From assembly GCF_026810505.1 (NCBI RefSeq), contig NZ_CP101750.1, forward strand, positions 6,620,514 to 6,684,513: DNA of 64,000 nt, read 5' to 3'. A program made the position numbers and the translations under genes. The stretch comes from Streptomyces sp. Je 1-369 (GTDB lineage Bacteria > Actinomycetota > Actinomycetes > Streptomycetales > Streptomycetaceae). Positions 28,395-58,972 of this stretch are shown in pieces (positions within the stretch are counted from its first letter, which is position 1; each line of letters begins with the position of its first letter). The notes beneath the pieces are model-generated. The model was not told where the DNA came from. It made no database searches and saw only the letters and a program-made list of their open reading frames with translations.

Positions 28395-29768
28395 ATGCAG
28401 GCAGAACCGAACAAAACGCAGGCGGGGAACGCGCGGGCGGACGCCGCCGAGTCGGCCGTTTCTTTGATCGGCAAGGAGTACGAGGTAGAGATCGGCCCCG
28501 TCGCGCACGGCGGCCACTGCATCGCCCGCACGGCCGAGGGCCAGGTCCTCTTCGTGCGGCACGCGCTGCCCGGCGAGAAGGTCGTCGCGCGCGTGACGGA
28601 GGGCGAGGAGGGCGCACGCTTCCTCCGCGCGGACGCGGTGTCGATCCTGGACCCGTCCAAGGACCGCGTGGAGGCCCCCTGCCCCTACGCGGGCCCCGGC
28701 CGCTGCGGCGGCTGCGACTGGCAGCACGCGAAGCCGGGCGCACAGCGCCGCCTCAAGGGCGAGGTCATCGCCGAACAGCTCCAGCGCCTCGCCGGACTCA
28801 CCCCCGAGGAGGCGGGCTGGGACGGCACGGTCATGCCCGCGGAGGGCGACAAGCTCCCGCCCGGCGAGGTCCCGTCCTGGCGCACGCGCGTGCAGTACGC
28901 GGTGGACGCGGACGGCAACGCGGGCCTGCGCCGCCACCGCTCGCACGAGGTCGAGCCGATCGAGCACTGCATGATCGCGGCTGAGGGCGTCTCCGAACTC
29001 GGCATCGAGGAGCGCGACTGGTCGGGCATGGCGTCGATCGAAGCGATCGCGGCGTCGGGCTCCCAGGACCGTCAGGTGATCCTGGCCCCGAAGCCGGGCG
29101 CACGCCTGCCCATCGTCGAACTGGACAAGCCGGTCTCGGTGATGCGAATCGGCGAGAAGGACGGCGGAACGCACCGCGTCCACGGCCGCCCCTTCGTCCG
29201 CGAACGCGCCGACGGCCGCACGTACCGGGTGGGCAGCGGCGGCTTCTGGCAGGTCCACCCGAAGGCGGCGGAAACCCTGATGCTGGCCGTCATGCAGGGC
29301 CTCACGCCCCGCAAGGGCGACACGGCCCTGGACCTCTACTGCGGCGTGGGCCTCTTCGCCGGCGCCCTCGCGGACCGCGTCGGCGAGAAGGGCGCGGTGC
29401 TCGGCATCGAGTCCGGCAAGCGGGCGGTGGAAGACGCCCGCCACAACCTCGCGTCCTTCGACCGCGTCCGCATCGAACAGGGCAAGGTCGACTCGGTCCT
29501 CCCGCGCACGGGCATCACGGAAGCCGACCTCATCGTCCTGGACCCGCCCCGCGCGGGCGCGGGCAAGCAGACGGTGAAGCACTTGGCGGGGCTGGGGGCA
29601 CGACGGATCGCGTACGTGGCGTGCGATCCGGCTGCGCTGGCGCGGGACCTGGGGTATTTCCGGGAGGGTGGGTATCGGGTGCGGACGCTTCGGGCGTTTG
29701 ATTTGTTTCCTATGACGCATCATGTGGAGTGTGTGGCGATTCTGGAGCCGGTCGCGAAGGGTGCCTGA
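28395..29768 (+). CDS. TRAM-domain class I SAM-dependent RNA methyltransferase (RlmC/RlmD/TrmA family)
   Basis: The protein has 457 residues. The N-terminal TRAM domain (about 25-85) includes IGPVAHGGHCIARTAEGQVL. Cysteines C96, C104 and C107 (CPYAGPGRCGGC) plus a later Cys in EPIEHCMIAA form the 4Fe-4S site of the RlmD type. The SAM-binding loop is LDLYCGVGLFAGAL. LDPPRAGAG and YVACDPAALARDL give the catalytic Cys of uracil-5-methyltransferases. Target uracil (rRNA or tRNA) is not readable. The last ~180 bp use clearly different synonymous codons (G- and T-ending), next to the island junction. Confidence 0.92.
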   Translation: MQAEPNKTQAGNARADAAESAVSLIGKEYEVEIGPVAHGGHCIARTAEGQVLFVRHALPGEKVVARVTEGEEGARFLRADAVSILDPSKDRVEAPCPYAGPGRCGGCDWQHAKPGAQRRLKGEVIAEQLQRLAGLTPEEAGWDGTVMPAEGDKLPPGEVPSWRTRVQYAVDADGNAGLRRHRSHEVEPIEHCMIAAEGVSELGIEERDWSGMASIEAIAASGSQDRQVILAPKPGARLPIVELDKPVSVMRIGEKDGGTHRVHGRPFVRERADGRTYRVGSGGFWQVHPKAAETLMLAVMQGLTPRKGDTALDLYCGVGLFAGALADRVGEKGAVLGIESGKRAVEDARHNLASFDRVRIEQGKVDSVLPRTGITEADLIVLDPPRAGAGKQTVKHLAGLGARRIAYVACDPAALARDLGYFREGGYRVRTLRAFDLFPMTHHVECVAILEPVAKGA

Positions 29769-30339: not shown

Positions 30340-33279
30340 TTAGGGTGCGGGGGCTCCCGCGGATGGCTCGAAGAGCGACAACTGTTCGTCGTGCTCGGCC
30401 GGTTCCGGCATGCGGGCCAGGCCCGGTGCAGCCGCCACATCCGGGTTTGCGTCTGCCACCTGGTCGGTTTCCGGAGTCGAGTCCTCTTCGGCGCGGGTGG
30501 GGAGGACGTACTCCTGAGACAGGCCCGCGAGGTGCAGCGGCAGCGGAAGGCTCAACGCGTCTGGCAGATCGGGAGCCTGCCGCAACTGATGAACGGCCAG
30601 TGCCAGGGCCTCGGGCACGTCCCCGTCCTGCGGGTGGCAGCCGATCACGGCGACTTCGACCAGGCCGGGGTTCCAGGCGGCTTCGCCCGTGTCGATGGTC
30701 AGTTTTCCTTTGGTATTGACCCGTGGGGCCAGCTTGTCCGCGGCTACAGACAGCTTGAAGGTTTGAGCCTTGGGTGTGGTCGACCAGAAGACACGTGCCT
30801 CGCCCGGGGCAGCAGATGGATCGGTCCACAGGTGGGCCGGAAGACCGTTGGCGCTGGTCGGGTCCGGATTCAGGCCCCACCACTGCGCAGTTTCGCGGCC
30901 GCGTGCGCTGCGCACCCGTACGATCCGCAGATCCGGATCCAGGCGGCGGGCGGGGGCGTGGCCGCCGCGGAATTTGTCCGCCACCACATTGCCGTCCTGC
31001 AGCCAGGTCCAGTGCGAGCGCATGTTTTGGCCGTGCACGAGCAACACGGTGGGGGTGTCTCGAACGGAGCGCAACACCTTCTCCAACCATTCCTCGGCAC
31101 TCCGACGCTGTTGCGCCCGGTCCGTCCACCAGGACGGGAGACTCGTCGGTTCACCGGTGTTACGCGGGGCAGGCACCGCGTGTCGGGGAACTTCGGCACG
31201 GCGGGTGAGTTGCAGCAGCATGACCGGGTACGGCACCCAGGCCCGGGCCTGCTCGTCCCAGCCCTGCACCCGGGCGGTGCCTTCCCCCGACGGCTGAGGT
31301 GTGACGAGGACCGCGACGGGAACATGGCTGGCCCAGCGGGTGCGACTGCGCCCGTTCTTGCGCACCATCCAGGTGGCCAAGTACCGCAGCCCTTGCGGAA
31401 GTTGTTCGCCGAGGCTGTGCTCGGGATGTACGCGCACGCCCAACTGTCGCAGACCGTCGTCCCATGCTTTGGCAGCACGAAATTCTGCGTTCTTCTCGCT
31501 GTTGTAACCCTTGGTCTTCTTCGGTACGGCCATGAACTGCGTCAGTACTTTGGCGTCGGCGCACCCCAGGCGCAGCGCGAACTTCGGATCATGAGCAGGG
31601 GAGGAGAAGTCCTTCGCGCGGTCGATTTCCACCAGCGCGAGAGTGGGTACGGGCGAGGCTTGGTCCGATGCGACGAACTCGGCGGTCTGCGTACGACGCA
31701 CGGCGAGCGCAGTCGTGACGGCTTCACGGGAATGCCGGATCCCGTCGGGAAGGGGCAGGTCGCCGCCGAGGGAACGTGACAGCTTCAGGCACCGCAGACG
31801 CACGACGAGCTCAGGCATCTGCCATTCGAGGACCACCGGGCTGGTGTCGTATGTGGACGAAGCGTCGGGGGCGCCGCCGTCGCCCTTCAGGTCCAAGTGC
31901 GCAATGAGCGCCGCGACGGTGATGTCGCGCATCGTCGGCGTCTGCCACAGCAGTCGCGCTTCCAGTACGGGAGTCACACCGGCGTCCACCCCGGGGCTGA
32001 GGTCGCCCAACGCGAACGCGGCTCCCTTCCGCCGGGCTTCAGCGCGACGAAGATTTGCCTCCGCCTTCTTTGCCGCCTCGGAAGGGTCCTGCCGGGGGTT
32101 GGCGGGTGCGCTGCCGGAGAGGCGGGTACGGACGAGAGGTGCGGTGGGGCGAAGCCCCTCGGGCAGTGCCTTCTCGGCCCACTCGGTGATGGCGGAGCGC
32201 TGGTGGGACATCAGACCGGCGCCCACCTCGTGCGACCCCATGGCCGTGCTGTACACGACAGCCGCGCGCATGTCGTCCTGGATCCATCCGGCAGGTGCGG
32301 CAAGCAGGGCCTGCGCGTCGGGGAACGGGTCGGTGAGGGAGATGTTGCGCAGCATGCCGGCCGGGCCGCCGCCCACCCAGTCGTAGACTCCCTGGAGCCA
32401 TGCGAGCCGGGCCACGGCGAACCGGTCGCTGAGCGGCGCACCGGGCAGCCAGGGCACGCGCGGTCGCAGCATGACCGTTGTCCTGCGCCCGAAGGGAAGG
32501 TGGAGGCGGCCGGACTTCGCACCGACGTGGGTGGCGTACCGCCGGATGTGGGTGTGGAAGTGGAACCGCGGCAGCGGTTCGAAGGGCACCGTGTGGAGGG
32601 TGATGTTCAGGACCACCGAGTACCACTCCGTGCCGCGAGTGCCTTCGTGCGGCAGTGCCTGCGACACCAGCTCGGCACCTTGGTCCTGCGGCCCGCGCGG
32701 CATCGCCCGGAAACGCAGCCGTCCCGCTCCGAAGTCGTACGGCTCCAGAGAGAGGATCCTCTGGGCCAGCCAGTCGGTGGTCAACTGGAACTGGCCGGGG
32801 TCCGGAGCAGCGGTTCCGCCTGTGGTCGTCACGCACTTGAGCAGTTCCACCTCGACGTCCTGTTGCCACTGGGGCGGTTCCTCCTGGAACAGGGCCCGCA
32901 CCTCGGCGACGCGGGAACGGTGCTCGGGTTCCGGGCGGAGGTCGCGGAGCCAGGCCCCCAACAGGCTCTGGAAGGCCGGATCGGGGAGCGGGGCCGGGGA
33001 CGAGTGGGGTGCGTACAGCCAGTAGTCCGGTTCCTCGCCCCGGTACTGCGAGGGGCGCGGGCGTACCAGCAGGTCGGGAGCGAAGGTCTGGAGCACTTGG
33101 TCCATGCGCCAGGTCGGCACTGTCTCCCATCGCTTCTCACGGCCCGCGCTGCACAGGTCGAGCAAGGCATCTCGCCACTGCTCGGGGAACGGAAGCGCGC
33201 GGTAGCGGGCGACGTGGGAGGCATCGGGAGAGGCCGGAAGCCAGCAAGCGGTTCGGACGGAGTTGTAGCGCAGGGCCAT
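30340..33279 (-). CDS. pPIWI-RE family prokaryotic PIWI protein
   Basis: The protein has 979 residues from the ATG at 33279, with GGAAGG nine bases upstream. The C-terminal third looks like an RNase H-fold PIWI module. A first core strand ALVEID lies at 548-553, LLVHGQNMR at 746-754, the conserved basic/acidic cluster ARGRET at 792-797, and the typical PIWI ending LPLPLHLA near 911-918. The N-terminal two thirds match the MID-like and X regions of pPIWI-RE proteins in general layout. Burroughs, Iyer and Aravind described pPIWI-RE genes in three-gene units with a DinG-type helicase and a REase, as here, and proposed RNA-guided or RNA:DNA-hybrid-directed immunity. Guide and activity are unknown. 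The tail after 920 is acidic and disordered. Confidence 0.85.
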   Translation of the reverse strand: MALRYNSVRTACWLPASPDASHVARYRALPFPEQWRDALLDLCSAGREKRWETVPTWRMDQVLQTFAPDLLVRPRPSQYRGEEPDYWLYAPHSSPAPLPDPAFQSLLGAWLRDLRPEPEHRSRVAEVRALFQEEPPQWQQDVEVELLKCVTTTGGTAAPDPGQFQLTTDWLAQRILSLEPYDFGAGRLRFRAMPRGPQDQGAELVSQALPHEGTRGTEWYSVVLNITLHTVPFEPLPRFHFHTHIRRYATHVGAKSGRLHLPFGRRTTVMLRPRVPWLPGAPLSDRFAVARLAWLQGVYDWVGGGPAGMLRNISLTDPFPDAQALLAAPAGWIQDDMRAAVVYSTAMGSHEVGAGLMSHQRSAITEWAEKALPEGLRPTAPLVRTRLSGSAPANPRQDPSEAAKKAEANLRRAEARRKGAAFALGDLSPGVDAGVTPVLEARLLWQTPTMRDITVAALIAHLDLKGDGGAPDASSTYDTSPVVLEWQMPELVVRLRCLKLSRSLGGDLPLPDGIRHSREAVTTALAVRRTQTAEFVASDQASPVPTLALVEIDRAKDFSSPAHDPKFALRLGCADAKVLTQFMAVPKKTKGYNSEKNAEFRAAKAWDDGLRQLGVRVHPEHSLGEQLPQGLRYLATWMVRKNGRSRTRWASHVPVAVLVTPQPSGEGTARVQGWDEQARAWVPYPVMLLQLTRRAEVPRHAVPAPRNTGEPTSLPSWWTDRAQQRRSAEEWLEKVLRSVRDTPTVLLVHGQNMRSHWTWLQDGNVVADKFRGGHAPARRLDPDLRIVRVRSARGRETAQWWGLNPDPTSANGLPAHLWTDPSAAPGEARVFWSTTPKAQTFKLSVAADKLAPRVNTKGKLTIDTGEAAWNPGLVEVAVIGCHPQDGDVPEALALAVHQLRQAPDLPDALSLPLPLHLAGLSQEYVLPTRAEEDSTPETDQVADANPDVAAAPGLARMPEPAEHDEQLSLFEPSAGAPAP

Positions 33280-33319
33280 GGTGGTTCGCCTTCCGGGGCA
33301 GGGGGTACGGCGGGGCTGT

Positions 33320-36300
33320 TCAGGAGACGTGATGGGTGAGGTCGCGCAATGCCTTGTACAGCGGCGCGTACAGGAGTTGGGCCACGGCAGGGTCGCCGAA
33401 GTCGGGAAAGGCGGAGGGATCGGCCGACGGGCCGAAGTAGGGGGCGAGAACATCGCGCAGTCCTGTCAACAGTCCGTCCTGGGAAGGGACTTGCGTCGAC
33501 AAGGACCCCGGCGAGAGGGCCCGGGCCGTTCGCGGGGCGAATCGCGCGTCGACGAACACCACCCTGGCAGGGACGCCACCTCGGACGAGTCGGCCGATGA
33601 CCTGCCAGATGGTGACCAGCTGGTCCCATGTGAAGGACTGTTTCTCCCGGTCGGACAGCCGCGAGTAGATGTACCGGCGTGCCAGCAGCCTGCGCCACTC
33701 CGCCCGGGCCACATGGCGGAAGGCGAGGCCGGCGGCGTCGAGGTCCTCCGCGTCGGCGGCGAGCTTGCCGAAAGTTCCCTGTTCCAGGCCGGGTTCGTTC
33801 CGTACGAAGCGCGAGGCCCAGTCGTTGATGGCGAAGACGGCCAGCGACAGGTCGTCGGGGCGGGGGTGCGGGCGCGCCAGGAACAGTGCGGTCCCGAAGG
33901 CGGCGTTGCGCTGGGCGTTGAGGATGTTGTGCCCGCGCTCGACCGCCATCAGGGGGGCCACCAGGATCTCCGCGCTGCAGTCCTCGGCGAAGGACGCCAG
34001 ATCTCCACGCCTCAGAACGGTCACCGCTCCCTGGCCCGACGCCCGGAGCGTCGACCCCGACGGGCCCACGGCCTGTTCCAGATCCGCGTCGTCGGCTGCG
34101 AGAACGCGCACCCTGTCGCGCCATCGGTCCAGGTCGTGCAGCGCCATGGCGACGGTGTTTGCCTCCTTGTAGCTGCCCACGAGCAGGATCGCCCGTCGGC
34201 GGCGGTCGTCGGTGACTTTCGCGAGCTCCTGTTCAAGAGGGCTGGGGCCGCCGCCACGTCCCGGAGAGCCGAGCTTCTGCGCCAGCTCGCGCGCCGCTGC
34301 TGGGCGTGTCTTGGGGTCCACCGCGGAGAGGCCCATCGGGCGGCCGTTGTCGTCGTACAGGAAGTGCGTGGTGAAGACCGACTCCCCAACGGCCCGCAGT
34401 GATCGCTCCGACGGTTTTAGAACGGCGCCCACCGGGGCGAGCACATGGGCACGGGTGGAGGTGCCCGCCCAGCTCGTGCCAGACATCAGCACCACGTGAG
34501 GGCCTTTCCGGCCGGCCCCGGGATCGGAGCCCACCTCGGACAGCGAGAGCAGGAGAGCGCGGCCGACACCCGCACAACGGAAGAAGCGCAGCGTGCCGCT
34601 GTGCCGACCGTCGTCGTCCCGCTCGCGTTCGTCGGGGAGATACTGGAAGCCCAGCACGTTGCCCATGGGAGCTTCCGGGACCAGCGGGGCGTAGTCGAGG
34701 GGAGGCCGGCGGGAGAGTTCGTTGCCGGTCGAATCGAGATGCAGAGCCGCCTCGACCTGCGGCCACAGGAAGACCAGCCGGTCGAGCCGCTGGTTGAGCG
34801 CGCTCAGCAGCAGCATGAACTCCAGTCTCCGCGCGGTCAGGTCGAGCCACTGGTCGTCCTCGACGCGTGCCGCCGCCGGGGTACGGGCGAGCATCGGGAC
34901 CAGCACCGCCACGGCCCGCCCACGGGACGCCGGGGTGGAGAGGGTCGTCAGCACATCGTGTGCGAGCCGGACCAGGTCGTCGGTCTCGTTGGCATAGGGG
35001 CCGTCGCCGCCGAGCGGGTCGTCCCGGAACGCGTCGAAGATGTCCGTCAGTTCCTTGCGTAGCGCGTCGGTGACAGGACCGGCCGACTCGGGTTCCGGTG
35101 CGTCGTCCTCGTACGCCTCGTACAGTTCCGCCTCGTCCGGGACGCCGTCGGGTGCGCCCGTCGATGTGGCCGGGGCGAACCACTCGCCGAGGAGCTTCTC
35201 CTGGAGAGTCCAGGGGCTGAAGTACTCGATGTCCGCCCACTCGCGGAGATCGGCGTCCGAGATCAGCAGCTTGTACAGGCGGTCCGTGGCCGAGTGGGCC
35301 ACGGTGAGTGAGGCGGACCACCGCTCGATCTCCTGATCGGTGAGCGGCAGCCTGCCCTGCTTGGACAGCTCCTCGATCCGGTGCGTCTGCACCTGGTCGA
35401 GCCAGGAGTCGATGCCGGGGGAGACGAGGGTGGCGGAAGGGGCGAAGATCTCGTCCAGTTTCATCTGGACGGAGTCCGCTTCGTCGACGAAGACGATGTC
35501 GCTGCGCAGCAGAGCGAGTTCCAGGTGACGGAGCCGTTCGGCACCCAGGTGCCGGGGGACGGCGGACTGCACGAGGCTCGCGGGGTTCGCCACCCAGATC
35601 AGGGCGTCCACCAGCTCGCGGGCCGTGTGGTGGCGTGGGCAGGCGTGCCACAGGGGGCAGCCGTGCGGAGCGCCTTTCAGCTCGGCCGACTGCGTTTCGG
35701 CACGCCGAGGTGCGGTCTTGCCAGGTTGATAAGGCTCCGGCAGCGCCGGGTCCGTAGCGGGCTGCGGGTCCTGACGCTTTTTCTCCGGATACAGGGACGC
35801 GCAGGGGGCATCCGCGTAGCGCAGTGGCTCGGCGGCCTCGGTACCGCGCAGCGCGTTGATCACACACACGGTGCTCAAGTCGTCGAAGCCGGGGGCGTCG
35901 TGGTCGAGGATGTTGTCCAAGCCGCGCGCGGCGAGCCTGCGGTGGAGGCGTTGTACGTGGGTCTGCCGGGTCGTCAGACCCAGTACGGGGGCGGCAACGA
36001 GCCCCAAGTCCCGCAGGAGCCCGGTCAGCCGCAGTTGTTCCGCGACGTCCCCCACGACCAGAGTGGTACGCAGCCCCTGGCGTGCGCCCCAGACGGCCAC
36101 TAGGGTCATCAGCGTCGACTTGCCCGCGCCGACCATGCCCGCCAGATGCAACAGTCCTTCGATGCGCAGGGTGTCGGAATCGACGAAGGACAGTCCGTCG
36201 CTGCTGCGCGGTGCAAGCCGCAACTCCGTCAGCCGGTCCTCCCAGTACCCCGGGCTCGCGACAGCCATCGCCCGCTCGGTCTCGTCCATCCATCGTGCGG

Positions 36301-36925
36301 TGTCCAAAAGTTCCGCTCGCTTCACCAGGAGCGGTGCGCCGTCGCCGGGACGCCCGAGGTCGGGCCGGTGTCCGGGAACGGGATCGGCAGCCAGCCCTGC
36401 GGGAAGGGTTACCGACGTGGGACGCCGCCAGGCGAGGAAGGTGGCACGGCCGGGCGGGGCGAGCGACAGTTCCTTGCGCGCGAGCGGGGGGAGGGCCGCC
36501 AGCGCCATGTCGTACACGGTGAACCGCTCGGAGTCCTCCGGTTCCGTGCGCACGGCGGGCACGCCGCCCTCCAGCGGCACGTCGTACACACGCACCCGCG
36601 GCGGCAGTGCACGGTAGGTGTCGAGGGCCTGGTGCCAGGTGCGGCGTCGGCGCAGCGTCCACAGGAGGTGGCGTCCCGCCGTGAGCATGATTTCGTGCTC
36701 CTCGGTCACCGCCAGACCTCGGGATCGGGCGAAGGGGTAGCCGCCGAAGAGGACGTAGGCGCCTCGGGGGCATTCGCCGGGCGCGATGTGTTCGAGCAGC
36801 CGGAGTGCCAGTTCGACCTGACAGACCAGTGCGGGTCTCGTCCCGGACAGTTCCGCGGGGACGTCACCCCACACTTGGGTGAGCTGTTCGGTCACCTTCT
36901 TGTACCAGCCGTCGCGGTCACGCAC
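33320..36925 (-). CDS. DinG/XPD-like superfamily 2 helicase of the pPIWI-RE system
   Basis: The protein has 1201 residues from a GTG. The N-terminal ~120 residues (QVELALRLLEHIAPGE, GAYVLFGGYPFARSRG, RTWHQALDTYRALPPRVRVY) match the pPIWI_RE_Z type. Walker A is GMVGAGKST at 263-271, the DEAD-type box is VFVDEAD at 479-484, and motif VI is QVIGRLVRGG near 1110. Cysteines C354, C375, C423 and C429 between motifs I and II could hold an XPD/DinG-like Fe-S cluster, though the spacing is unusual. It overlaps the REase gene by 8 bp, and the PIWI gene follows after 40 bp. The likely role is unwinding DNA or R-loops for the PIWI and nuclease partners. Confidence 0.85.
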   Translation of the reverse strand: MRDRDGWYKKVTEQLTQVWGDVPAELSGTRPALVCQVELALRLLEHIAPGECPRGAYVLFGGYPFARSRGLAVTEEHEIMLTAGRHLLWTLRRRRTWHQALDTYRALPPRVRVYDVPLEGGVPAVRTEPEDSERFTVYDMALAALPPLARKELSLAPPGRATFLAWRRPTSVTLPAGLAADPVPGHRPDLGRPGDGAPLLVKRAELLDTARWMDETERAMAVASPGYWEDRLTELRLAPRSSDGLSFVDSDTLRIEGLLHLAGMVGAGKSTLMTLVAVWGARQGLRTTLVVGDVAEQLRLTGLLRDLGLVAAPVLGLTTRQTHVQRLHRRLAARGLDNILDHDAPGFDDLSTVCVINALRGTEAAEPLRYADAPCASLYPEKKRQDPQPATDPALPEPYQPGKTAPRRAETQSAELKGAPHGCPLWHACPRHHTARELVDALIWVANPASLVQSAVPRHLGAERLRHLELALLRSDIVFVDEADSVQMKLDEIFAPSATLVSPGIDSWLDQVQTHRIEELSKQGRLPLTDQEIERWSASLTVAHSATDRLYKLLISDADLREWADIEYFSPWTLQEKLLGEWFAPATSTGAPDGVPDEAELYEAYEDDAPEPESAGPVTDALRKELTDIFDAFRDDPLGGDGPYANETDDLVRLAHDVLTTLSTPASRGRAVAVLVPMLARTPAAARVEDDQWLDLTARRLEFMLLLSALNQRLDRLVFLWPQVEAALHLDSTGNELSRRPPLDYAPLVPEAPMGNVLGFQYLPDERERDDDGRHSGTLRFFRCAGVGRALLLSLSEVGSDPGAGRKGPHVVLMSGTSWAGTSTRAHVLAPVGAVLKPSERSLRAVGESVFTTHFLYDDNGRPMGLSAVDPKTRPAAARELAQKLGSPGRGGGPSPLEQELAKVTDDRRRRAILLVGSYKEANTVAMALHDLDRWRDRVRVLAADDADLEQAVGPSGSTLRASGQGAVTVLRRGDLASFAEDCSAEILVAPLMAVERGHNILNAQRNAAFGTALFLARPHPRPDDLSLAVFAINDWASRFVRNEPGLEQGTFGKLAADAEDLDAAGLAFRHVARAEWRRLLARRYIYSRLSDREKQSFTWDQLVTIWQVIGRLVRGGVPARVVFVDARFAPRTARALSPGSLSTQVPSQDGLLTGLRDVLAPYFGPSADPSAFPDFGDPAVAQLLYAPLYKALRDLTHHVS

Positions 36926-38075
36926 CCTGGCCTCCCTCGGCTCCGGTCAGCCGGGCGCGGGCGCGCCTGATCAGTGTGGTGTCGGTCAGCAGGGGCAGGG
37001 ACCGCGCGTGCGGAGGGCGGTTGCGGGCATACGTGGCGAGGTAGTCGGGGCGGTCGGCGACCCGGCTTTGCGGCACCACCCAGAACGCCGCGTCGTACCG
37101 GGGCTCCTGGGGCACCGGGCGGGCGGAGCGCCCGAGGAACGCCGGGTGGGCCCAGTCCTTCACGTCGACCGCCCACACCCAGCCGTCGGGAAAGGTGATG
37201 TGCAGGTCGTAAGCGTCGAAGGCCGGCCACATGCGCACCCGCAGGCCGAGCCGCACCAAGGCCTTCTCCAGCTCGGCTTCCGCCCTGCCGGGACCGGTGA
37301 CGAACTGACGCAACGGACGCTCCAACTGGAGCAGTTCACCTGCCTCCTGGCGGGCGATGAGCCGCCCCAGGGGCGGCGCGCCCTGTCGGCGGCAACGGTC
37401 CCGCTCGCACCACCACCCGCTCTCCCTCAGCGGCGTGAGCAGGGTGAGGCAGCTGCCGCACGTGGCGTAGGTGTCGCCACGCAGGTAGCTGTCGGGCACG
37501 GGCTGGTAGATCCGCTTGACGAGTTCCTTCACCGGGGCGAGGACATGGTCCACGGAGACGGAGAAGGCGTCGGCCGAGGTCAGTACCGGACGGTTCACGA
37601 GCAACCGGCGGAACTCTGTGTAAGCGTCCTCCTCGCCGTACTCGCGACACAGCCTGAGCGCCGCCAGGATGATCTCTCGGTCGCGCTGGTCCAGCGCGCT
37701 GTCGGGGTACTTGTCCGCCCATTCGTGGCAGAGCTCGGTCGGGCGGGACGACACCGGATCGAGGAGCAGGTCGTCGGGTCCGACCGCCTCGTCGGGAAGT
37801 GCCATCGGCCAGTCCGCCACTGGTCGCTCCCGGCACCAGGACATCAGGTCGGGCAGGCTCATCGGTGGGCGTGCACCCCGCTCGAGGCAGGCGAGAACCG
37901 TCCCGTCCAGGGCGCGCTGGGCCTCGGGGGGATAGGGCAGCACGAAGGAGTGCAGACCGTCGACCGCGTCGAGGGCGGTGAGTGCGGAGGCGAGCGTGCG
38001 CATCAGGGCGACGCCGTCGTGGGCGGCCCAGTCTGCGGCGTACGGAGGAAGGCCGTCCGGCGTGGTCTCGCTCAT
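36918..38075 (-). CDS. pPIWI-RE system endonuclease (zinc ribbon plus PD-(D/E)XK fold)
   Basis: The protein has 385 residues from the ATG at 38075 with GTGAAGG upstream; start and previous stop overlap (ATGA). The N-terminal ~200 residues are helical (pPIWI_RE_Y-like). A zinc ribbon follows: C206, C209, C223 and C228 (ATCGSC, WWCERDRC). The C-terminal REase core has a leading helix AEAELEKALVRLGL, D290 in AYDLHI, and D304-V-K306 in WAVDVKDW, a D-(X)n-DxK active site. It should cut DNA, perhaps when presented by the helicase and PIWI protein. It is the standard third gene of pPIWI-RE loci. Confidence 0.82.
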   Translation of the reverse strand: MSETTPDGLPPYAADWAAHDGVALMRTLASALTALDAVDGLHSFVLPYPPEAQRALDGTVLACLERGARPPMSLPDLMSWCRERPVADWPMALPDEAVGPDDLLLDPVSSRPTELCHEWADKYPDSALDQRDREIILAALRLCREYGEEDAYTEFRRLLVNRPVLTSADAFSVSVDHVLAPVKELVKRIYQPVPDSYLRGDTYATCGSCLTLLTPLRESGWWCERDRCRRQGAPPLGRLIARQEAGELLQLERPLRQFVTGPGRAEAELEKALVRLGLRVRMWPAFDAYDLHITFPDGWVWAVDVKDWAHPAFLGRSARPVPQEPRYDAAFWVVPQSRVADRPDYLATYARNRPPHARSLPLLTDTTLIRRARARLTGAEGGQGA

Positions 38076-39700
38076 CCGGCCTTCACCCGGCCCTGCCCGG
38101 CTGCACAGTAACGCAGCATCTCGCACGCTTCGCACTGGTCACCGGGCCGGGGCTCGTAGGTCTCGTCGACGGCCCAGGGGGCGGCGAGACGGGAGATCAC
38201 CTGCCGGGCTTCGGCGACGGTGTCGGGGTCGCCCGGGTCGACTTCCAGGCAGCGTGATCCGTCCGCGTACAGCACTTCGAGCTCGATGAGTGAACGGCGC
38301 GGGTCGCCGCCGAGTACTCCGTGGGACATCAGGAGGACCGCCAGGGCGAGTTGCGGGTAGGACTCCAGCAGTGGACGTCCCTCCCACAACGGGCTGCTGG
38401 CCGTCTTGGTCTCGTGCCAGATCCAGCCGCCGTGCCGCGTGTACAGCAGGTCGGGGTCCGCCACGATCACCGTGTCCAGTTCGGGGTCGTAGGCCGTCAG
38501 GCGCTTCTGCACCTGCACTTCTTCGTCAGGGCCGAGCTCGTCGAGCGGACAGGCCCGTACATGCTCGGCGATCATGGCGAGCGCCGTGGTCTGCTCGTCC
38601 GGGCCCAGCTCCGGGAGTTCCTGCGGCAGCGCCGCATCGGCACAAGGGCCCTTGAGATGTTGCTGGTTGAGCCAGGCGTCGACGGCGCGCCCCCGGCGGA
38701 TCGGCTCGCTCTCCGGTGCGGGCGACTTCAGGTGGAGTACCCGCGTCAGGTGGAAGAAGGAGGGGCAGCAGTCGTACGCGCGAAGGTCAGAAGCGGACAC
38801 GGAGCGGCGCTTGCGGGGGCGGCGCGGTCCGGGAACGCCGAGCAGGCCGGGGGTCTTCGGCAGCCCCGTACAGCCCGAAAGGGCCTCGCACCGCACGCAT
38901 TCGGACCCGGGGTTGGTCGCGGTGCCGGTGACGGCGCGGGCGAGGGCCGGCCGGGCATGTGCGACGAACTCTTGTTTTACCCGGGTGGTGTCCCAGTCGG
39001 CCAGTACCCCGTACTCGCCGTCGCCGCAGCCCACCCCCATGACGCGGACCCGGTGGGGGAGGGCCGCACTTCCGGGGACCGGGCGGTGTATGTCGCCGAA
39101 CTCCGCGTGAGAGGGGGTACCGATCGCGAGGACGGAGGCGGCTTCGGCGATTTCCTCGGCGGGCCGGTCGTGCTTGAGGGAGTTGAAGGACGGCAACCAC
39201 AGCTCCCGCTCACCACCGTTCTTCGAGGCATACCGCCGCCCCCACGCGGTGCGTTCGTAGCGCAGGACGCCGCGTGCGTCGGGTGCCCGCAACTCCTCGC
39301 AGGAGGTCCACTCTTCCCGAACCGGCAGCGTGGCCGGGCGCCCGGCCACGCTGCGCTCGGCCTCCGACTGCCGACGTGCTGCGAGGAACGCGTACACCGC
39401 CGTGCGAGCCCAACTGACATGTCCAGCGGTGTACTTGCGGATTCGAGAGAGGTCGTCCAGTACGGCCTCCGGAGCCGTGCCGTCGAATTCCACGGAGTCC
39501 AGCGCGGCCATCACCGGGCCGAGGGCGAAGTCTTCGACTGGCTTGCGGCGCGACCGCTTCGGTGACTGCTGGATCAACGGCCTGGCCCGTACTGCGGAAC
39601 CGCGCGGGCAGTCCCGGGGGTCGTTGCGTACGAGCGGCAGAGAGGTGCGGACGAGGCGGGTGTCACCGTCGGTTCCGGGCGGGAGCGGTTGAAGCGTCAC
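38072..39700 (-). CDS. RecB/Cas4-like PD-(D/E)XK nuclease with Fe-S type cysteines, first gene of the pPIWI-RE operon
   Basis: The protein has 542 residues from the GTG at 39700 with AGAGG six bases upstream. The C-terminal domain has P416-D417 (VIVADPDLLY) and E430-T-K432 (WHETKT), a complete PD-(D/E)XK site. C311 or C312 lies before it, and C523-x2-C526-x5-C532 after it. That is the 4Fe-4S arrangement of Cas4 and AddB nucleases. A second C268-x2-C271-x5-C277 motif ends the N-terminal half, suggesting a duplicated and degenerated first copy. It is predicted to be a DNA exonuclease or end-processing nuclease. I do not recall it as part of the described three-gene pPIWI-RE set. Confidence 0.8.
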   Translation of the reverse strand: MTLQPLPPGTDGDTRLVRTSLPLVRNDPRDCPRGSAVRARPLIQQSPKRSRRKPVEDFALGPVMAALDSVEFDGTAPEAVLDDLSRIRKYTAGHVSWARTAVYAFLAARRQSEAERSVAGRPATLPVREEWTSCEELRAPDARGVLRYERTAWGRRYASKNGGERELWLPSFNSLKHDRPAEEIAEAASVLAIGTPSHAEFGDIHRPVPGSAALPHRVRVMGVGCGDGEYGVLADWDTTRVKQEFVAHARPALARAVTGTATNPGSECVRCEALSGCTGLPKTPGLLGVPGPRRPRKRRSVSASDLRAYDCCPSFFHLTRVLHLKSPAPESEPIRRGRAVDAWLNQQHLKGPCADAALPQELPELGPDEQTTALAMIAEHVRACPLDELGPDEEVQVQKRLTAYDPELDTVIVADPDLLYTRHGGWIWHETKTASSPLWEGRPLLESYPQLALAVLLMSHGVLGGDPRRSLIELEVLYADGSRCLEVDPGDPDTVAEARQVISRLAAPWAVDETYEPRPGDQCEACEMLRYCAAGQGRVKAG

Positions 39701-39845
39701 GGCGAACCTCTCATGGGGCGCGGGAACGTACTCGACAAGAGAAGCATGCGTCTGTGTACATAGTCAATCCAGTTGATGCATTCTGTTCATGAAACGCTAT
39801 GGTGTGTCAGGCGGCGCGCAGCGCGCAGGCAGAACGGGGTGAGGT
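39701..39845. promoter_or_regulatory. Divergent promoter region of the pPIWI-RE operon and the kinase gene
   Basis: This 145-bp AT-richer region contains the shared element at 39745-39771. On the plus strand TTGATG (39773-39778) and TATGGT about 19 bp later form a candidate kinase promoter. On the minus strand TTGACT (complement of 39762-39767) is a -35-like hexamer for the operon, with only a weak -10. Confidence 0.5.
39745..39771. promoter_or_regulatory. Shared regulatory element, copy 1
   Basis: This 27-bp sequence starts CATGCGT and ends AGTCAATCCA. Its counterpart is the reverse complement of 43403-43430 upstream of the methyltransferase: 22 positions are identical, with one 1-bp gap. 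Copy 1 lies 74 bp before the kinase start and 44 bp before the nuclease start. Confidence 0.6.
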
Positions 39846-41375
39846 GTGAAAGCCGGGGACGTCCTCGACGACGGGCGCTTCCTGGTCGAGGAGTCCCTCG
39901 ACCAGGGTGGCATGGGCAGCATTTGGAAGGCCACGGACACCACGACCGGAAGGACGGTCGCGGTCAAGGTCCTCCGGCTGGACGCCTATACGCACGGGCG
40001 CCTCAGCCCCGGCGAGCGGGCACGGCGCAACGCCGAGATGCTCAAGCGCTTCGAACGCGAAGGCACGATCCTCGCCGAGCTCGATCACCCCGCGATCCCC
40101 CGGCTTCTGCACCGGGGCTACTGGAGCGAAGAGCCGTACCTCGTCATGGAGTACGTCGACGGGCCCACCCTGCGCGAGTTCCTCGACCAGCACCGGCCGC
40201 TCCCGCTGGCGGCTGCCTGCGCCATCGCCGTCCAGATCGCCGAAGCCCTCGCCCATGCCCACTCCCACGGAGTGGTCCACCGGGACCTCAAGCCGGGGAA
40301 CATCGTCCTGAGCCGCGCCGACGGAAGGGTGAGCCTTCTCGACTTCGGCATCGCCTACCTCACGGACCCCGACGCGACGCGTTACACCGCACTCGGCGAG
40401 ACACCGGGCAGCGCCGGATACATCGCGCCCGAGCAGTTGCGCGGCCTGCGGGAGGTGACCGCCGCGGTGGACCGCTACGCCTTCGGTTGCGTGCTGTTCG
40501 AACTGGTCACGGCGCAGTGCCCCTTCGAGGACAAGCCGGACCGCAACAAGAACATCCAGCACCTCGAAGACCTGCCACCCCGCATGCGCTCCATCAACTC
40601 CGGTCTGCCGCAGGAACTCGACGACCTCGTCGCGGACCTGCTGAGCAAGATCCCCGGCGACCGCCCTGTCCGCATCGAAGAGGTGTGGGAAGCGCTCCAC
40701 GGCCTCCTGCCGTCCCCCGGTGACCCTGCTCCCGACCCGGCGCTCGAACCGGACCCGACGCTGCACTACCGCACGGCCGGAGGGCTGCACCCGGTCGCCG
40801 CGCCACGACAGCCCTCTGTGGTTCCCCGCCTGAACCGTCGGCGCGGCAGTTGGCTGGGGCGCGGGGAATTCGCCGCGCTCCAGGAAAGGGCCAAGGACGA
40901 ATTGGAAGCCACCGACGCGGGACCGGTGTGCGCACGCCTGGAGCGTGCCCTGGCCCAGGCTGTGGAGGACTGGGGGATCGCGGATCTCTCGGTCGCAAAA
41001 GCCCATCTGACCTGCGCCGATGCCGCTCTCCTCGGCGGACGTGTCCAGCGTGCCGAGTTCTTGTACGGGCAGGTTGCGGGCGCCCCCGCCCGGCATGCGG
41101 TCCCCGAACTTCGGGCCCTCATGCTGGAAGCGGAGATCGGGGTGGTGGAATGCCGCATCCCGGATGGGGACGCTTTGCGAGCGGTGGAGGACTGGACCCG
41201 GACGGTACGAGAGGTGCTCGAACTGTCCGATCAGGCGGCCTCGCTCCTTGCCCGCTGCCGCGAAGCGGGCCTCGGACTGGTCGATTGGCTCAGGTCCGAC
41301 CAGATCGACGCCGGCCAGATCGGCGCCGTCACGGAACTCCTCTCGCACCTGCCTGAGTCGTGCTTGCCCGACTGA
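39846..41375 (+). CDS. Soluble Ser/Thr protein kinase divergent from the pPIWI-RE operon
   Basis: The protein has 509 residues from the GTG at 39846. The Hanks-type kinase domain is intact: SLDQGGMGSIWKA (P-loop, 18-29), K41 in VAVKVL, HRDLKPGN (H145-R146-D147, K149), DFG 166-168 and APE 194-196. After about residue 290 comes a Pro-rich linker and then an alpha-helical C-terminal region (about 330-509) with repeat-like helices (FAALQERAKDELEATDAG, LTCADAALLGGRVQRAEF). No transmembrane span or PASTA domain is present, so it is not a cell-wall sensor of the PknB type. It is convergent with the methyltransferase gene, seven bases apart. A regulatory or toxic defence role is inferred from position. 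Confidence 0.88.
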   Translation: MKAGDVLDDGRFLVEESLDQGGMGSIWKATDTTTGRTVAVKVLRLDAYTHGRLSPGERARRNAEMLKRFEREGTILAELDHPAIPRLLHRGYWSEEPYLVMEYVDGPTLREFLDQHRPLPLAAACAIAVQIAEALAHAHSHGVVHRDLKPGNIVLSRADGRVSLLDFGIAYLTDPDATRYTALGETPGSAGYIAPEQLRGLREVTAAVDRYAFGCVLFELVTAQCPFEDKPDRNKNIQHLEDLPPRMRSINSGLPQELDDLVADLLSKIPGDRPVRIEEVWEALHGLLPSPGDPAPDPALEPDPTLHYRTAGGLHPVAAPRQPSVVPRLNRRRGSWLGRGEFAALQERAKDELEATDAGPVCARLERALAQAVEDWGIADLSVAKAHLTCADAALLGGRVQRAEFLYGQVAGAPARHAVPELRALMLEAEIGVVECRIPDGDALRAVEDWTRTVREVLELSDQAASLLARCREAGLGLVDWLRSDQIDAGQIGAVTELLSHLPESCLPD

Positions 41376-41382
41376 CGCGAAT

Positions 41383-43374
41383 TCACATTCCGGAGAGCCG
41401 CCCCTCCGCGATCAAATCGCCCAGCGACCGGCTCAACGTGCCCGCCGCGGAGCTCAGTTCCCGGGCCTCCCGCTCCAACGAAACGGCCTTCCGGTGAACT
41501 TCCCCGTACTTCTGCTGCTCGCGCAGGGGCAGGCGGGGCACCTGAAGGCGACGCACGTCGACCCGGGAGGAGGTGGAGGCATGCGTACCCGCCTGGCGGA
41601 CGTTGGCGGGCGCACCCAGACAACCCGCCAGGAACCAGGGATCGAGCAGTGCTGGGTCAACGCGCAGTGCGTAGAGCTGCGGGCCGAGCACCGAGGGTGC
41701 CTCGTCGTCCACGCTCACTCTGAAGTCCCTGGCGAGACCGACGACGATCACGTCCTGCGAAGCCGTCACCGTCAGGGTGCCGTCGGCCTCACCCCGCGCG
41801 GCCTCCGCCCGGGGCAACCAGTGACCCGTTTCCTTGGCGAGTACGACAGAGGTGAGTGCGGGAACCGCGTCCTCGGGCCGCTCCCCGCGCAGCACGAGGT
41901 GCTCCGGGACGCTCTGACCGGCGAGCACCTTCAGCGCTTCGGCCCGTTCCAGCTCCGCCACCGTCGCGCGCGTACCCGCACCTTCGCCGTTCGAAGGGGT
42001 CAGCCCTGACAGGCCGCCCGCCACGTCCCGCAGCTCGCGCAGATGCCTGTCGAACCGGGCCCACCCGTGGCGAAGATCCAGTCCGCTGGCCGCGTCGGAG
42101 CGTGGGATGTGCCGGGCGGGCGTGAGATCGACCTCGTCGTCGAGCAGGTCGATGACCGCGACGGCCACGCTGCCCGCAGCGTGCTCCCCGCGCAGCGCGG
42201 CCAGCACGCAGTCCCGCACCCGAGCCCAGTCCAACCCCGGCTTGCCCATGTCGGCGGCATCGAGACCGTGTGCGGCGTCCACCAGCAGTAGATCCGAGCT
42301 CACGTTTTCCGGGCCGGGAACAGCGAGCACCCACACATGCAGGCCAACGCCGTGCGGCGGCGCAGCCCCCGGCGGCAGTGCGATCACGGCACGCAGCACC
42401 CCGGCCTGCAACAGCTTCGCCCGCATCCGCCTCCCCGCCCGACGGGCGGCCACAGCCGGAGGAAGAACCAGCACGGCCGTCCCGCCGGGGGCCAACGCCG
42501 CGAGGGCGTGCTGGACCCAGGCCAGTTCCGGCTCGGTACGCGGCGGCAGCCCGTACGTCCAGCGGGTGTCGGTGGCGAGCTCCGCATGCCCCCAGTCCCG
42601 CTCGTTCGACGGCGGATTGCACAGCACCAGGTCCGCCCGCACCCCAGCTTGGGCATCCGCACGCAGCGTGTCGGCGACGGTGACGGATGCGGGAAGGCCC
42701 GCCATCGCGAGCCGCGCCGCCGCCAACGCCGCGAGTACGGGATCGCGGTCCTGCCCGAAAAGCTGAGGCCCTTCGCCTTCGGACATCGACCGGGCCGATG
42801 CCAGGAGCAGGGCCCCGGTCCCGCACGCCGGGTCCAGCACCGTGCGCACGCGGCGGCCATGGGCGGTCGTCACGATGTCGGTCAGCAACGCCGCCATCGG
42901 TTCGGGGGTGACCGTCACCTGGCGCACATGCGTTTGCAGCCAACGCTGGTAGAGGAAGTCGAAGGTTGCTTCAGGACCCTCGGAGTCCGCCACCTTCACG
43001 GCGCGGTCGAGAAGATCGGCCTGGTGCGTGTCGATGACGGGGAGCAGGCCGGCGAGATCTCCGCCGCGCTGTGGGCTCAGACGCTCACCCACCGCCGCCA
43101 CCAGATACCCCATCGAGTCGCGCCCTCCCACCGCCTCGAACTCCGGCCACAACCGGTCGAGCGCGCTCAGCGGGGACCTGAGCTTGCCCTCGGCCCGTAG
43201 CCACGCCTCGGTCTCGGCCCAGGAGAACTGGGGGCTGACGTCGTTGCCGTCCAACGGGGCGGGGAAACTCTCGTGCCGCCTCCGCCAGTTGCTGACCGCC
43301 GCCCGGCCGACCCCCACCATCCGCGCGATGTCCGCGAGGCTCACTGAGGCGTGCGGCCCTCGGGGCTGGGACAT
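41383..43374 (-). CDS. HTH / N6-adenine DNA methyltransferase with HsdS-like C-terminus
   Basis: The protein has 663 residues, with a strong GGAGG five bases before the ATG. An N-terminal helix-turn-helix (11-35, SLADIARMVGVGRAAVSNWR) and an HsdM-like helical region precede the methyltransferase core. Motif I is LDPACGTGAL (180-189); motif IV is NPPS at 253-256, a variant of NPPF/Y. The C-terminal ~200 residues resemble a half-length type I specificity subunit: a target-recognition-like region followed by VPRLPLREQQKYGEVHRKAV and a terminal coiled helix. No hsdR is adjacent. It may be an orphan or part of the adjacent McrBC/UvrD unit. Upstream lies the second copy of the shared element. Confidence 0.86.
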   Translation of the reverse strand: MSQPRGPHASVSLADIARMVGVGRAAVSNWRRRHESFPAPLDGNDVSPQFSWAETEAWLRAEGKLRSPLSALDRLWPEFEAVGGRDSMGYLVAAVGERLSPQRGGDLAGLLPVIDTHQADLLDRAVKVADSEGPEATFDFLYQRWLQTHVRQVTVTPEPMAALLTDIVTTAHGRRVRTVLDPACGTGALLLASARSMSEGEGPQLFGQDRDPVLAALAAARLAMAGLPASVTVADTLRADAQAGVRADLVLCNPPSNERDWGHAELATDTRWTYGLPPRTEPELAWVQHALAALAPGGTAVLVLPPAVAARRAGRRMRAKLLQAGVLRAVIALPPGAAPPHGVGLHVWVLAVPGPENVSSDLLLVDAAHGLDAADMGKPGLDWARVRDCVLAALRGEHAAGSVAVAVIDLLDDEVDLTPARHIPRSDAASGLDLRHGWARFDRHLRELRDVAGGLSGLTPSNGEGAGTRATVAELERAEALKVLAGQSVPEHLVLRGERPEDAVPALTSVVLAKETGHWLPRAEAARGEADGTLTVTASQDVIVVGLARDFRVSVDDEAPSVLGPQLYALRVDPALLDPWFLAGCLGAPANVRQAGTHASTSSRVDVRRLQVPRLPLREQQKYGEVHRKAVSLEREARELSSAAGTLSRSLGDLIAEGRLSGM

Positions 43375-45603: not shown

Positions 45604-45695
45604 GACGTGAACTCCCCGCTCCGGTATGGCTGTTCAGCGGCCGATCATACGGGCGGGGGCTGTGACCGGCGCATACGGGACGGTCCGCGACCAGC

Positions 45696-46928
45696 TCATT
45701 CGGGAAGGACCGGGGCCATCCGGCGTGCGAGCCCAGCGATGTCGTCGAGGAGCCCGGCCGGTGTCTGGTCCAGATCCAGGGCGTGCTGATGGATCACGAC
45801 CCTCGCATGCCGCACCTCGTGGGCCGCGTGCACGGCATTGCCCTTCGCGTACACCAGATGCCCCTCCCGCAGTCCGAGAGAGGTGCAGTACGCCAGCATC
45901 TGGTAGAGATCGGCGTCGGGGTAGCGGCCGCGCTTCTCCGCCTTGTACTTGGCGTCCGCCACAGCGGCCACCTTTCCGTCCGCCTCGTACAGCACGAAGT
46001 CCGGCCTCATGCGGATCGCGTCGGCCACATCGAGGTGGTGCGGGTCCTGGAGTCGCGCGGTACGGCCCGTGCCGCGCAGCGACTCCCGCAGGGCGGTGGT
46101 CACGAAGTCCTCGAAGAGCGTGTTCATGTCGAACAGGAAGCCGTTGATGCGCACCTCACCCGGCGCGTGCTCGGCGGACGCCCCGTCCAGTACGACCCGC
46201 GCCAGTCGAAGGGCCTGGTGATAACGGGAGTTGAGGCGGTTCGGATGCCACGCGGGCAGCTTCCTGCCCCGTACGACAGGCGTGACGTCCGCCAGCCGCA
46301 CACGCTGGTGCAGGAGCCTGCGCCGCACGTCCCCCGGCACGCCGGGCAGCCGCAGCAGGCGCTCCACGGCCGTCCGCAGGATGCGGTTCTCCGCGATGTC
46401 GGTGTTGAACTCGTCGTACGCCACCTCCACCGGCAGCGTCATCCCAAAGCGCCGCCGGATCTGCTCGGCCTCCCTGATCCGACCTCGTACGACGAGGGCG
46501 CTCTGCTCCGTCGGGCGGTACCCCTGCAACAGCCCTTGTCGCAGCGCCCGGTCCACCTGACGCTCCATCGCATGGGCCAGCGTGGGCAGCAGGTCGCGGT
46601 GCTCGGCCACCTCCACGTCCTCGTCCCGCCAGTTCCGCTTCGGGTCGAGGCTGTAACCCAGCAGGAAGAAGAGCCGGGCGATCGGCACCTTGGGGGTGAC
46701 GCGAAGGGTGACCGGCGGCCCACCATCAGGCGTGCCGACGCTGACCGCACCGACCTTGCTGCTCGCCTTCAGCGACCAGACACCCGGTGTGTACGGATCC
46801 GGAGCCGCGCTGACCATGTCACCGGCGGCGAGCGCTCGTCCGATGGCGTCGGGCAGCCGCCTGGAGGTGGCCGGGGCGTGTTCGACCAGCTCGATGTCGT
46901 CGGAGTCCTCGGAACTCACCCGGTTCAC
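45696..46928 (-). CDS. mcrC: McrC-type restriction nuclease subunit
   Basis: The protein has 410 residues from a GTG whose first bases overlap the mcrB stop (GTGA). The N-terminal half is the McrC scaffold (TPKVPIARLFFLLGYSLDPK, EFNTDIAENRILRTAVERLL, INGFLFDMNTLFEDFV). The C-terminal PD-(D/E)XK nuclease has MRPDFVLYEADGKVAAVADA followed by KYK, giving the PD...DAK site. McrC is the cleavage subunit of type IV restriction; with the McrB GTPase it cuts DNA carrying modified cytosines. All catalytic residues appear intact. Confidence 0.9.
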   Translation of the reverse strand: MNRVSSEDSDDIELVEHAPATSRRLPDAIGRALAAGDMVSAAPDPYTPGVWSLKASSKVGAVSVGTPDGGPPVTLRVTPKVPIARLFFLLGYSLDPKRNWRDEDVEVAEHRDLLPTLAHAMERQVDRALRQGLLQGYRPTEQSALVVRGRIREAEQIRRRFGMTLPVEVAYDEFNTDIAENRILRTAVERLLRLPGVPGDVRRRLLHQRVRLADVTPVVRGRKLPAWHPNRLNSRYHQALRLARVVLDGASAEHAPGEVRINGFLFDMNTLFEDFVTTALRESLRGTGRTARLQDPHHLDVADAIRMRPDFVLYEADGKVAAVADAKYKAEKRGRYPDADLYQMLAYCTSLGLREGHLVYAKGNAVHAAHEVRHARVVIHQHALDLDQTPAGLLDDIAGLARRMAPVLPE

Positions 46929-48790: not shown

Positions 48791-48860
48791 GGCTTCCTCG
48801 GCTCTTCGGGCTGGCACCGCACGGCTGTGGAGCTGTGATCTTCTTCGAGCCTACTGGCCC

Positions 48861-58943: not shown

Positions 58944-58972
58944 GTGCGTCGTCAAGTCCTCTGGAAGAAAGG

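What the first reader, a model, noticed from the sequence alone, without database searches (positions are those of the whole stretch)
30340..39700. Four-gene pPIWI-RE operon with a dedicated extra nuclease
Seen: four same-strand genes with ATGA, 8-bp and 40-bp junctions encode, in transcription order, a Cas4/AddB-like PD-(D/E)XK nuclease, a zinc-ribbon/REase protein with D290...D304-V-K306, a DinG-like helicase with pPIWI_RE_Z-like N-terminus, and a PIWI protein with ALVEID, GQNMR and ARGRET motifs. Known: the last three correspond to the pPIWI-RE unit described by Burroughs, Iyer and Aravind, still poorly understood experimentally. Inference: the tight coupling of the first gene makes this a four-component machine that could pair helicase-driven strand opening with two different nucleases.
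Basis: partly seen in the sequence, partly recalled or inferred. Interest (0 to 1): 0.9.

Follow-up and report, generated by a model that had tools for sequence, protein, structure and literature searches.

The report
Kinase-linked six-gene bacterial PIWI cassette
A cluster of genes for an Argonaute-like (PIWI) protein, a helicase and two DNA-cutting enzymes in a soil bacterium turns out to be part of a larger conserved set that also holds a protein kinase and a methyltransferase-like protein, which suggests a switched, nucleic-acid-guided defence against invading DNA.

Summary
The four-gene operon is real and is a pPIWI-RE system: the Pfam pPIWI-RE domains are present, in the published order, with the junctions described. 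Its extra first gene is not a new association: PADLOC-DB (2023) has a profile named PprPDDEXK, and 56 of 56 related operons collected here carry it. A divergent Ser/Thr kinase travels with the operon in 54 of 55 assessable loci, and an N6-methyltransferase-like gene in 47 of 53. Loci that share this side rarely share downstream neighbours. Kinase and MTase-like gene also pair at pPIWI-RE-free sites, including one in this genome near mfd. PprPDDEXK is AdnA/Cas4-like, with a second, inactive-looking Fe-S half. The window's PIWI domain seems to lack catalytic aspartates; its MTase-like protein reads NPPS where NPPF/Y is usual. Best reading: an actinobacterial six-gene variant in which a cleavage-deficient PIWI protein and DinG helicase find targets, two PD-(D/E)XK enzymes cut, and kinase plus MTase-like sensor gate the response. 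The architecture is near certain; the mechanism is inferred. Only open-access papers could be searched.

The parts
38072..39700 (-). PprPDDEXK, 542 aa: C-terminal AdnA/Cas4-like Fe-S PD-(D/E)XK nuclease (Cys 312/523/526/532; D417, E430, K432) after an N-terminal half with its own Cys quartet (31/268/271/277) and no matching active site
   Evidence: Pfam PDDEXK_1 6.1e-21; PADLOC PprPDDEXK 3.4e-140; residues invariant in 60 rows; AlphaFold2 pLDDT 94.2; fold matches
36918..38075 (-). PprRE: domain Y, zinc ribbon (Cys 226/229/243/248 of the longer ORF) and REase domain
   Evidence: Pfam; PADLOC PprRE 2e-118; conservation
33320..36925 (-). PprDinG: domain Z plus DinG-type helicase with Fe-S cysteines 354/375/423/429 and helicase motifs
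   Evidence: Pfam pPIWI_RE_Z 6.8e-47; PADLOC PprDinG 3.8e-272; residues invariant in 67 rows
30340..33279 (-). pPIWI-RE protein: X, MID and RNase H (PIWI) domains; no Asp at the inferred catalytic positions near 640 and at 750
   Evidence: Pfam; PADLOC PprPIWI 4.3e-286; alignment columns
39846..41375 (+). Ser/Thr kinase, 509 aa, divergent from the operon; kinase motifs intact
   Evidence: Pfam Pkinase 3.5e-44; K41, H145-R146-D147 and D166 in 56 of 56 rows; in 54 of 55 assessable loci
41383..43374 (-). N6-MTase-like protein, 663 aa, with N-terminal HTH; ends 7 bp from the end of the kinase gene; motif IV reads NPPS
   Evidence: Pfam N6_Mtase 8.1e-31; in 47 of 53 assessable loci; motif IV
39701..39845 (.). 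Intergenic region between the divergent kinase and operon starts, probably a two-way promoter
   Evidence: About 103-153 bp in the eight relatives printed; conserved TTGACT-type block and repeated GTTCAC words among close relatives, seen by eye

Best explanation
This is the actinobacterial six-gene form of the pPIWI-RE system, most likely a defence against invading DNA. SHOWN by sequence: the gene set, its order and its conservation; intact nuclease, helicase and kinase signatures; no Asp at the inferred PIWI catalytic positions of this protein. INFERRED: the PIWI protein holds a nucleic-acid guide or an RNA-DNA hybrid but does not cut. The Fe-S DinG helicase opens or tracks the duplex. Cutting is done by PprRE and by the AdnA/Cas4-like PprPDDEXK, whose second Fe-S half may grip DNA. 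The HTH/MTase-like protein reads DNA or SAM status and, with the Ser/Thr kinase, sets whether the operon or its proteins are active, which would hold two dangerous nucleases in check.
For: pPIWI-RE identity. Kinase in 54 of 55 and MTase-like gene in 47 of 53 assessable loci. Upstream neighbours homologous in 1326 of 1326 locus pairs, downstream in 79 of 1176. In an even class sample the kinase is present in 5 of 7 operons with PprPDDEXK and 0 of 8 without, Fisher p = 0.007. Distances of the six proteins correlate at r 0.88-0.97. Kinase and MTase pair again without pPIWI-RE in 6 of 7 loci and in the own genome. Active sites. Defence-gene surroundings. Passages of PMC11981726 report a DinG-like protein with a kinase-like domain and another with an Argonaute-like RNase H domain.
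Against: No experiment. G123 and G199 (near-identical to each other) have the four-gene operon without a kinase, and the MTase-like gene is missing in 6 of 53 loci, so neither can be needed everywhere. 19 of 50 MTase rows keep NPPF/Y, so methylation is possible in part of the family; 13 of 64 PIWI rows have Asp at position 750. The PIWI catalytic mapping rests on Pfam boundaries and strand order, not on a good model (pLDDT 54.2). Deletion of PsPIWI-RE raised ciprofloxacin sensitivity, which points to replication or repair (PMC10991935).
Confidence: 0.5

Rival explanations
1. A true restriction-modification system: the MTase marks self DNA, the PIWI/DinG/nuclease set attacks unmarked DNA, and the kinase regulates, in the manner of Pgl/BREX or MADS.
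For: N6_Mtase domain 8.1e-31; motif I kept where covered and NPPF/Y in 19 of 50 rows; conserved C-terminal part; 47 of 53 loci have the gene.
Against: The window reads NPPS; 31 of 50 rows have S, T or A there, and some read DLP, SLP or NLP. Six loci have the nucleases without the MTase gene nearby. The C-terminal part shows no sign of diversifying specificity.
Confidence: 0.25
2. A DNA repair or replication-conflict system: it clears R-loops, stalled forks or broken ends and is not mainly a defence.
For: PsPIWI-RE deletion raised ciprofloxacin sensitivity (PMC10991935); DinG acts on R-loops (stated in PMC3702460); the nuclease half resembles AdnA of AdnAB; the related kinase-MTase pair of this genome lies near mfd.
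Against: Rare and patchy: 17 of 394 genomes of the class match RNaseH_pPIWI_RE. It sits among defence genes and has relics (L081, L086).
Confidence: 0.17
3. The kinase and MTase-like gene are passive neighbours in a shared defence hotspot.
For: Defence islands gather unrelated genes; UvrD and McrBC next door seem to be such bystanders.
Against: 1326 of 1326 upstream against 79 of 1176 downstream pairs. The genome has only 27 other kinase matches in 8.82 Mb, so repeated adjacency by chance is negligible.
Confidence: 0.03

Closest known systems
pPIWI-RE three-gene system (Burroughs, Iyer and Aravind 2013, PMC3702460)
   Same: REase (Y, zinc ribbon, REase), DinG (Z, Cys-rich helicase) and PIWI (X, MID, RNase H) proteins in the same order with tight junctions
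   Different: Adds PprPDDEXK, a Ser/Thr kinase and an MTase-like gene; the 2013 paper describes no methylase with the triad
PADLOC Ppr profiles (PprPDDEXK, PprRE, PprDinG, PprPIWI)
   Same: All four operon proteins match
   Different: No Ppr-named profile among the hits shown for the kinase (25 of 37 shown) or the MTase-like protein (25 of 32 shown), whose best hits are PD-T4-6 and MTase_I; the PADLOC system definition was not seen
PsPIWI-RE of Pseudomonas stutzeri (PMC10991935)
   Same: pPIWI-RE protein whose gene overlaps dinG
   Different: PsPIWI-RE cuts with D525 and D610; the window protein seems to lack the matching residues
Catalytically inactive pAgos with separate nucleases, including Cas4-family (PMC6299218; ACE1, PDB 9iac and 9iab)
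   Same: PIWI-fold protein without an obvious active site beside a RecB/Cas4-like nuclease
   Different: Different PIWI family, plus DinG helicase, second nuclease, kinase and MTase-like gene
Pgl/BREX and MADS (kinase and MTase roles recalled)
   Same: Combine an MTase and a Ser/Thr kinase with effectors
   Different: No PglZ or BrxC among the cassette proteins; NCBIfam MAD6 and MAD2 cut-offs not reached

Membership tests
pPIWI-RE system | PIWI protein with X, MID and pPIWI-RE RNase H domains | tested here: met
   Three Pfam domains over their cut-offs
pPIWI-RE system | REase protein with Y domain and zinc ribbon | tested here: met
   pPIWI_RE_Y and pPIWI_RE_REase; four Cys in 67 of 67 rows
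pPIWI-RE system | DinG-type helicase with Cys-rich region and Z domain | tested here: met
   pPIWI_RE_Z, PprDinG, four Cys in 67 of 67 rows
pPIWI-RE system | Gene order REase, DinG, PIWI with tight or overlapping ends | tested here: met
pPIWI-RE system | Absolutely conserved Arg and Glu of the PIWI domain | tested here: inconclusive
   Several Arg and Glu columns are invariant or nearly so (R786, R789, E797, E876), but the published pair was not mapped onto them
PADLOC PprPDDEXK | Match to the PprPDDEXK profile | tested here: met
   466.3 bits, 3.4e-140
MADS | MAD6 kinase and MAD2 MTase over the NCBIfam cut-offs | tested here: not met
   181.3 bits against 460 and 17.8 against 720
BREX/Pgl | PglZ and BrxC in the cassette | tested here: not met
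   None of the six cassette proteins is named PglZ or BrxC in the hits shown; PglW kinase 70.1 bits against 990
Type I restriction-modification (HsdM) | HsdM over the NCBIfam cut-off | tested here: not met
   TIGR00497 34.2 bits against 242.75
Active N6-adenine MTase | Motif IV with aromatic fourth residue (recalled) | tested here: not met
   NPPS in the window; F or Y in 19 of 50 rows of the alignment
Anti-phage defence system | Protection against phage or plasmid | not testable with these tools
   Only genomic context is available

The most novel reading that the evidence does not exclude
A kinase-gated Argonaute-superfamily immune system: a cleavage-dead pPIWI-RE protein and a DinG helicase select targets, two separate PD-(D/E)XK nucleases destroy them, and a SAM-binding pseudo-methyltransferase with a Ser/Thr kinase, recruited from an older actinobacterial signalling pair, licenses the attack.
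Probability: 0.33. Interest if true: 0.87.

Novelty: new variant of a known kind. Interest (0 to 1): 0.64.

Why it matters
The biological role of the pPIWI-RE family has been open since 2013. This work says what the full unit is in Streptomyces and relatives, so that an experiment can include the kinase and the MTase-like gene instead of three or four genes. It offers a case in which a PIWI protein seems to have handed cutting to two partner nucleases, and it ties a PIWI system to protein phosphorylation. The older kinase-MTase pair gives a second, independent way into the same proposed switch.

Tried and rejected
Rejected: UvrD and McrBC (43441-48817) as cassette members. The UvrD gene lies 66 bp upstream of the MTase-like gene on the same strand, but in five loci where sequence upstream of that gene was held (L081, L118, L121, L136, L137; 1.5 to 16 kb) neither was found there; of the 62 loci only L036 shows them, on the other side. 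In most of the 62 loci the fetched stretch ends inside the MTase-like gene, so this rests on few. Rejected: a diversifying specificity region in the MTase-like protein; its C-terminal part is well conserved. Corrected: I first took E552 (ALVEID) for the first PIWI catalytic position (note); the Pfam boundaries put it in the MID domain and the site was moved to about 640.

No use: PIWI structure from 12 sequences (pLDDT 54.2); PDB sequence searches (no relevant match); phage records with the helicase (no match); no Pseudomonas name among the 120 of 215 hits listed in the third protein search, so PsPIWI-RE could not be aligned; a paper search for ACE1 (none). The halves of PprPDDEXK align only weakly by profile (E 7e-4, probability 26%; the global run found nothing), so duplication is an inference from Cys pattern and predicted fold.

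Papers: none of the listings that I saw describes a PIWI/kinase/MTase cassette (1 paper; 40 of 202 listed; 13; 14; 0; 20 of 339 listed). Only open-access PMC is held.

Row handling: of the 62 loci six were left out of the census (L078-L081, L086, L087: pieces, relics or no PIWI hit). L035 was added by eye to the 44 six-gene loci of the rule, because a long open frame misled the rule. Not assessable: L083 for the kinase; L031, L032 and L083 for the MTase (contig ends). G090 (short contig) was left out of the 0 of 8; among those eight, G018 has one weak MTase hit (54 bits).

Full report
What is there. Four minus-strand genes between 30340 and 39700 match the pPIWI-RE domains of Pfam and PADLOC's PprPDDEXK, PprRE, PprDinG and PprPIWI profiles. 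The junctions are an ATGA overlap, an 8-bp overlap and a 40-bp gap. The published family is a triad of REase, DinG and PIWI in strict order, described without an associated methylase gene (PMC3702460, section on the bacterial family read in full). The extra first gene is an addition to that description, but PADLOC already has a profile for it.

The unit is larger. I collected relatives of the PIWI gene from the GTDB species genomes with 10-kb flanks (62 loci) and searched them with the window's proteins. Fifty-six loci carry PIWI, DinG and REase genes, and all 56 carry PprPDDEXK (L083 is cut by a contig end; in L085 it is fused to or broken by a transposase-like ORF). A kinase gene on the opposite strand precedes the operon in 54 of 55 assessable loci (not in L085). 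The N6-MTase-like gene is present in 47 of 53: 45 in the window's arrangement, one between kinase and nuclease (L071), one beyond the PIWI gene (L059). It was not found beside L039, L067, L073, L082, L084 and L085. The patterns favour close relatives, so this set cannot tell how common operons without the nuclease are.

An even sample does that. Of 394 genomes of the class, 17 match RNaseH_pPIWI_RE at E <= 0.001, 16 of them over the curated cut-off. PprPDDEXK occurs in 8 of those 17, in 7 of them beside the PIWI gene; in G215 it stands alone. Five of the seven have the kinase; G123 and G199, near-identical to each other, do not. Of eight assessable genomes without PprPDDEXK none shows a kinase hit near the PIWI gene, and one shows a weak MTase hit of 54 bits; Fisher p = 0.007 for the kinase, with the caution that rows are few and not fully independent. 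pPIWI-RE triads on three Nostoc plasmids and one Streptomyces plasmid show none of the three extra genes. Nuclease, kinase and MTase-like gene thus behave mostly as one added package.

Control for shared ancestry and hotspots. Upstream neighbours are homologous in 1326 of 1326 pairs of 52 loci; downstream neighbours in 79 of 1176 pairs of 49 loci. For pairs whose PIWI proteins are under 60% identical the figures are 1042 of 1042 and 40 of 912. Pairwise distances of the six proteins correlate at r 0.88-0.97 over 50 rows, as expected for joint inheritance. The cassette ends at the PIWI gene.

An older pair. The genome holds 27 other kinase matches, the best at 174.3 and 174.1 bits. The only other MTase of this family found in it lies at about 3.662-3.664 Mb, directly beside the 174.3-bit kinase, about 5 kb from a gene that NCBIfam calls mfd. 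In seven further loci with paralogous MTases and no pPIWI-RE hit, six have a kinase gene at the MTase, one of them with a small ORF between. Kinase and HTH-MTase are therefore an older two-gene module of which the cassette carries a diverged copy. Their function is unknown to me.

PIWI. By Pfam the RNase H domain starts near residue 634 of the 980-residue translation. The stretch 634-646 holds no Asp in the window; 26 of 64 rows have one at its far end, mostly within KRRKDG. Position 750 is His in the window and in 41 of 64 rows, Asp in 13. In PsPIWI-RE two aspartates, D525 and D610, were needed for cutting (PMC10991935, parts 1-3 of 4 read). I infer that the window protein binds but does not cut; the mapping is mine and not structural. 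Ryazansky and colleagues note that inactive pAgos pair with separate nucleases, Cas4 and RecB-like ones among them (PMC6299218, passages), and a survey of DinG-like proteins mentions one with a kinase-like domain and one with an Argonaute-like RNase H domain (PMC11981726, passages).

MTase-like protein. Motif I is kept where covered. The fourth residue of motif IV is F or Y in 19 of 50 rows and S, T or A in 31, including NPPS here; some rows read DLP, SLP or NLP. That the aromatic residue is needed for catalysis is recalled. The HTH is among the best conserved stretches (86% over residues 1-40 in pairs with 65-90% PIWI identity). I read the protein as a DNA- and SAM-binding sensor in this lineage, with methylation possible in others.

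Context. Around the cassette the window holds McrBC, a UvrD-like helicase, a DrmMI-like MTase, a DpdE-type helicase (1874 bits) and a DruE-like helicase. Of seven large downstream genes, picked by size from 42 listed, five match PADLOC families strongly (DruE, DrmD twice, JetC2, STAND_TPR), one is McrB-like with weaker hits, one has none. The flank L137 holds BREX PglZ and BrxC. This fits a defence role but does not show one.

Verdict. Six-gene cassette as a conserved unit: about 0.95. Defence role: about 0.75. Kinase and MTase-like protein gating two nucleases under a cleavage-deficient PIWI protein: about 0.35 to 0.5. I found no description of the cassette in the listings seen; these cover open-access PMC only, and searches showed part of their results.

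Noticed in passing
L149:5704-10128 (own genome, about 3.66 Mb); L142, L143, L144, L145, L146, L148: A Ser/Thr kinase gene sits beside an HTH/N6-MTase-like gene at sites without pPIWI-RE, about 5 kb from mfd in the own genome and, by eye, near an mfd-like gene in L144 and L145. The MTase there reads HPPF in four of the eight paralogues aligned.
   Followed up: partly
L147:6905-9412: The one paralogous MTase locus without a kinase hit has a divergent gene that looks by eye like a PP2C phosphatase.
   Followed up: no
51829-63874 and L150:1-1412: DrmMI-like MTase, DpdE-type helicase (1874 bits) and DruE-like helicase next to each other, with another Ser/Thr kinase just beyond the window's end: perhaps a mixed system of its own.
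   Followed up: no
43441-48817; L036:14788-20133: McrB, McrC and a UvrD-like helicase occur together both here and in L036, so they may be a separate three-gene set.
   Followed up: no
L024:10007-13709 and L025:9524-13095: Two actinobacterial plasmids carry distant PprPDDEXK homologues without pPIWI-RE, each followed by a hypothetical gene and an ImmA/IrrE metallopeptidase gene.
   Followed up: no
L141:9926-11710 (G215): A PprPDDEXK homologue with none of the other searched cassette genes in the 20 kb fetched around it.
   Followed up: partly
28395-29768; L058:15428-16807; L086:10587-11981: The same RlmD/amino-acid permease pair borders the PIWI end of the cassette here, in L058 and beside a PIWI relic in L086: a recurrent chromosomal site.
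   Followed up: partly
L081:5302-11968: A relic that keeps the MTase-like gene, the kinase and the 3' part of the PIWI gene but lacks the nuclease, REase and DinG genes.
   Followed up: no
39701-39845: The divergent intergenic region has a conserved TTGACT-type block and repeated GTTCAC words among close relatives, a possible operator.
   Followed up: no
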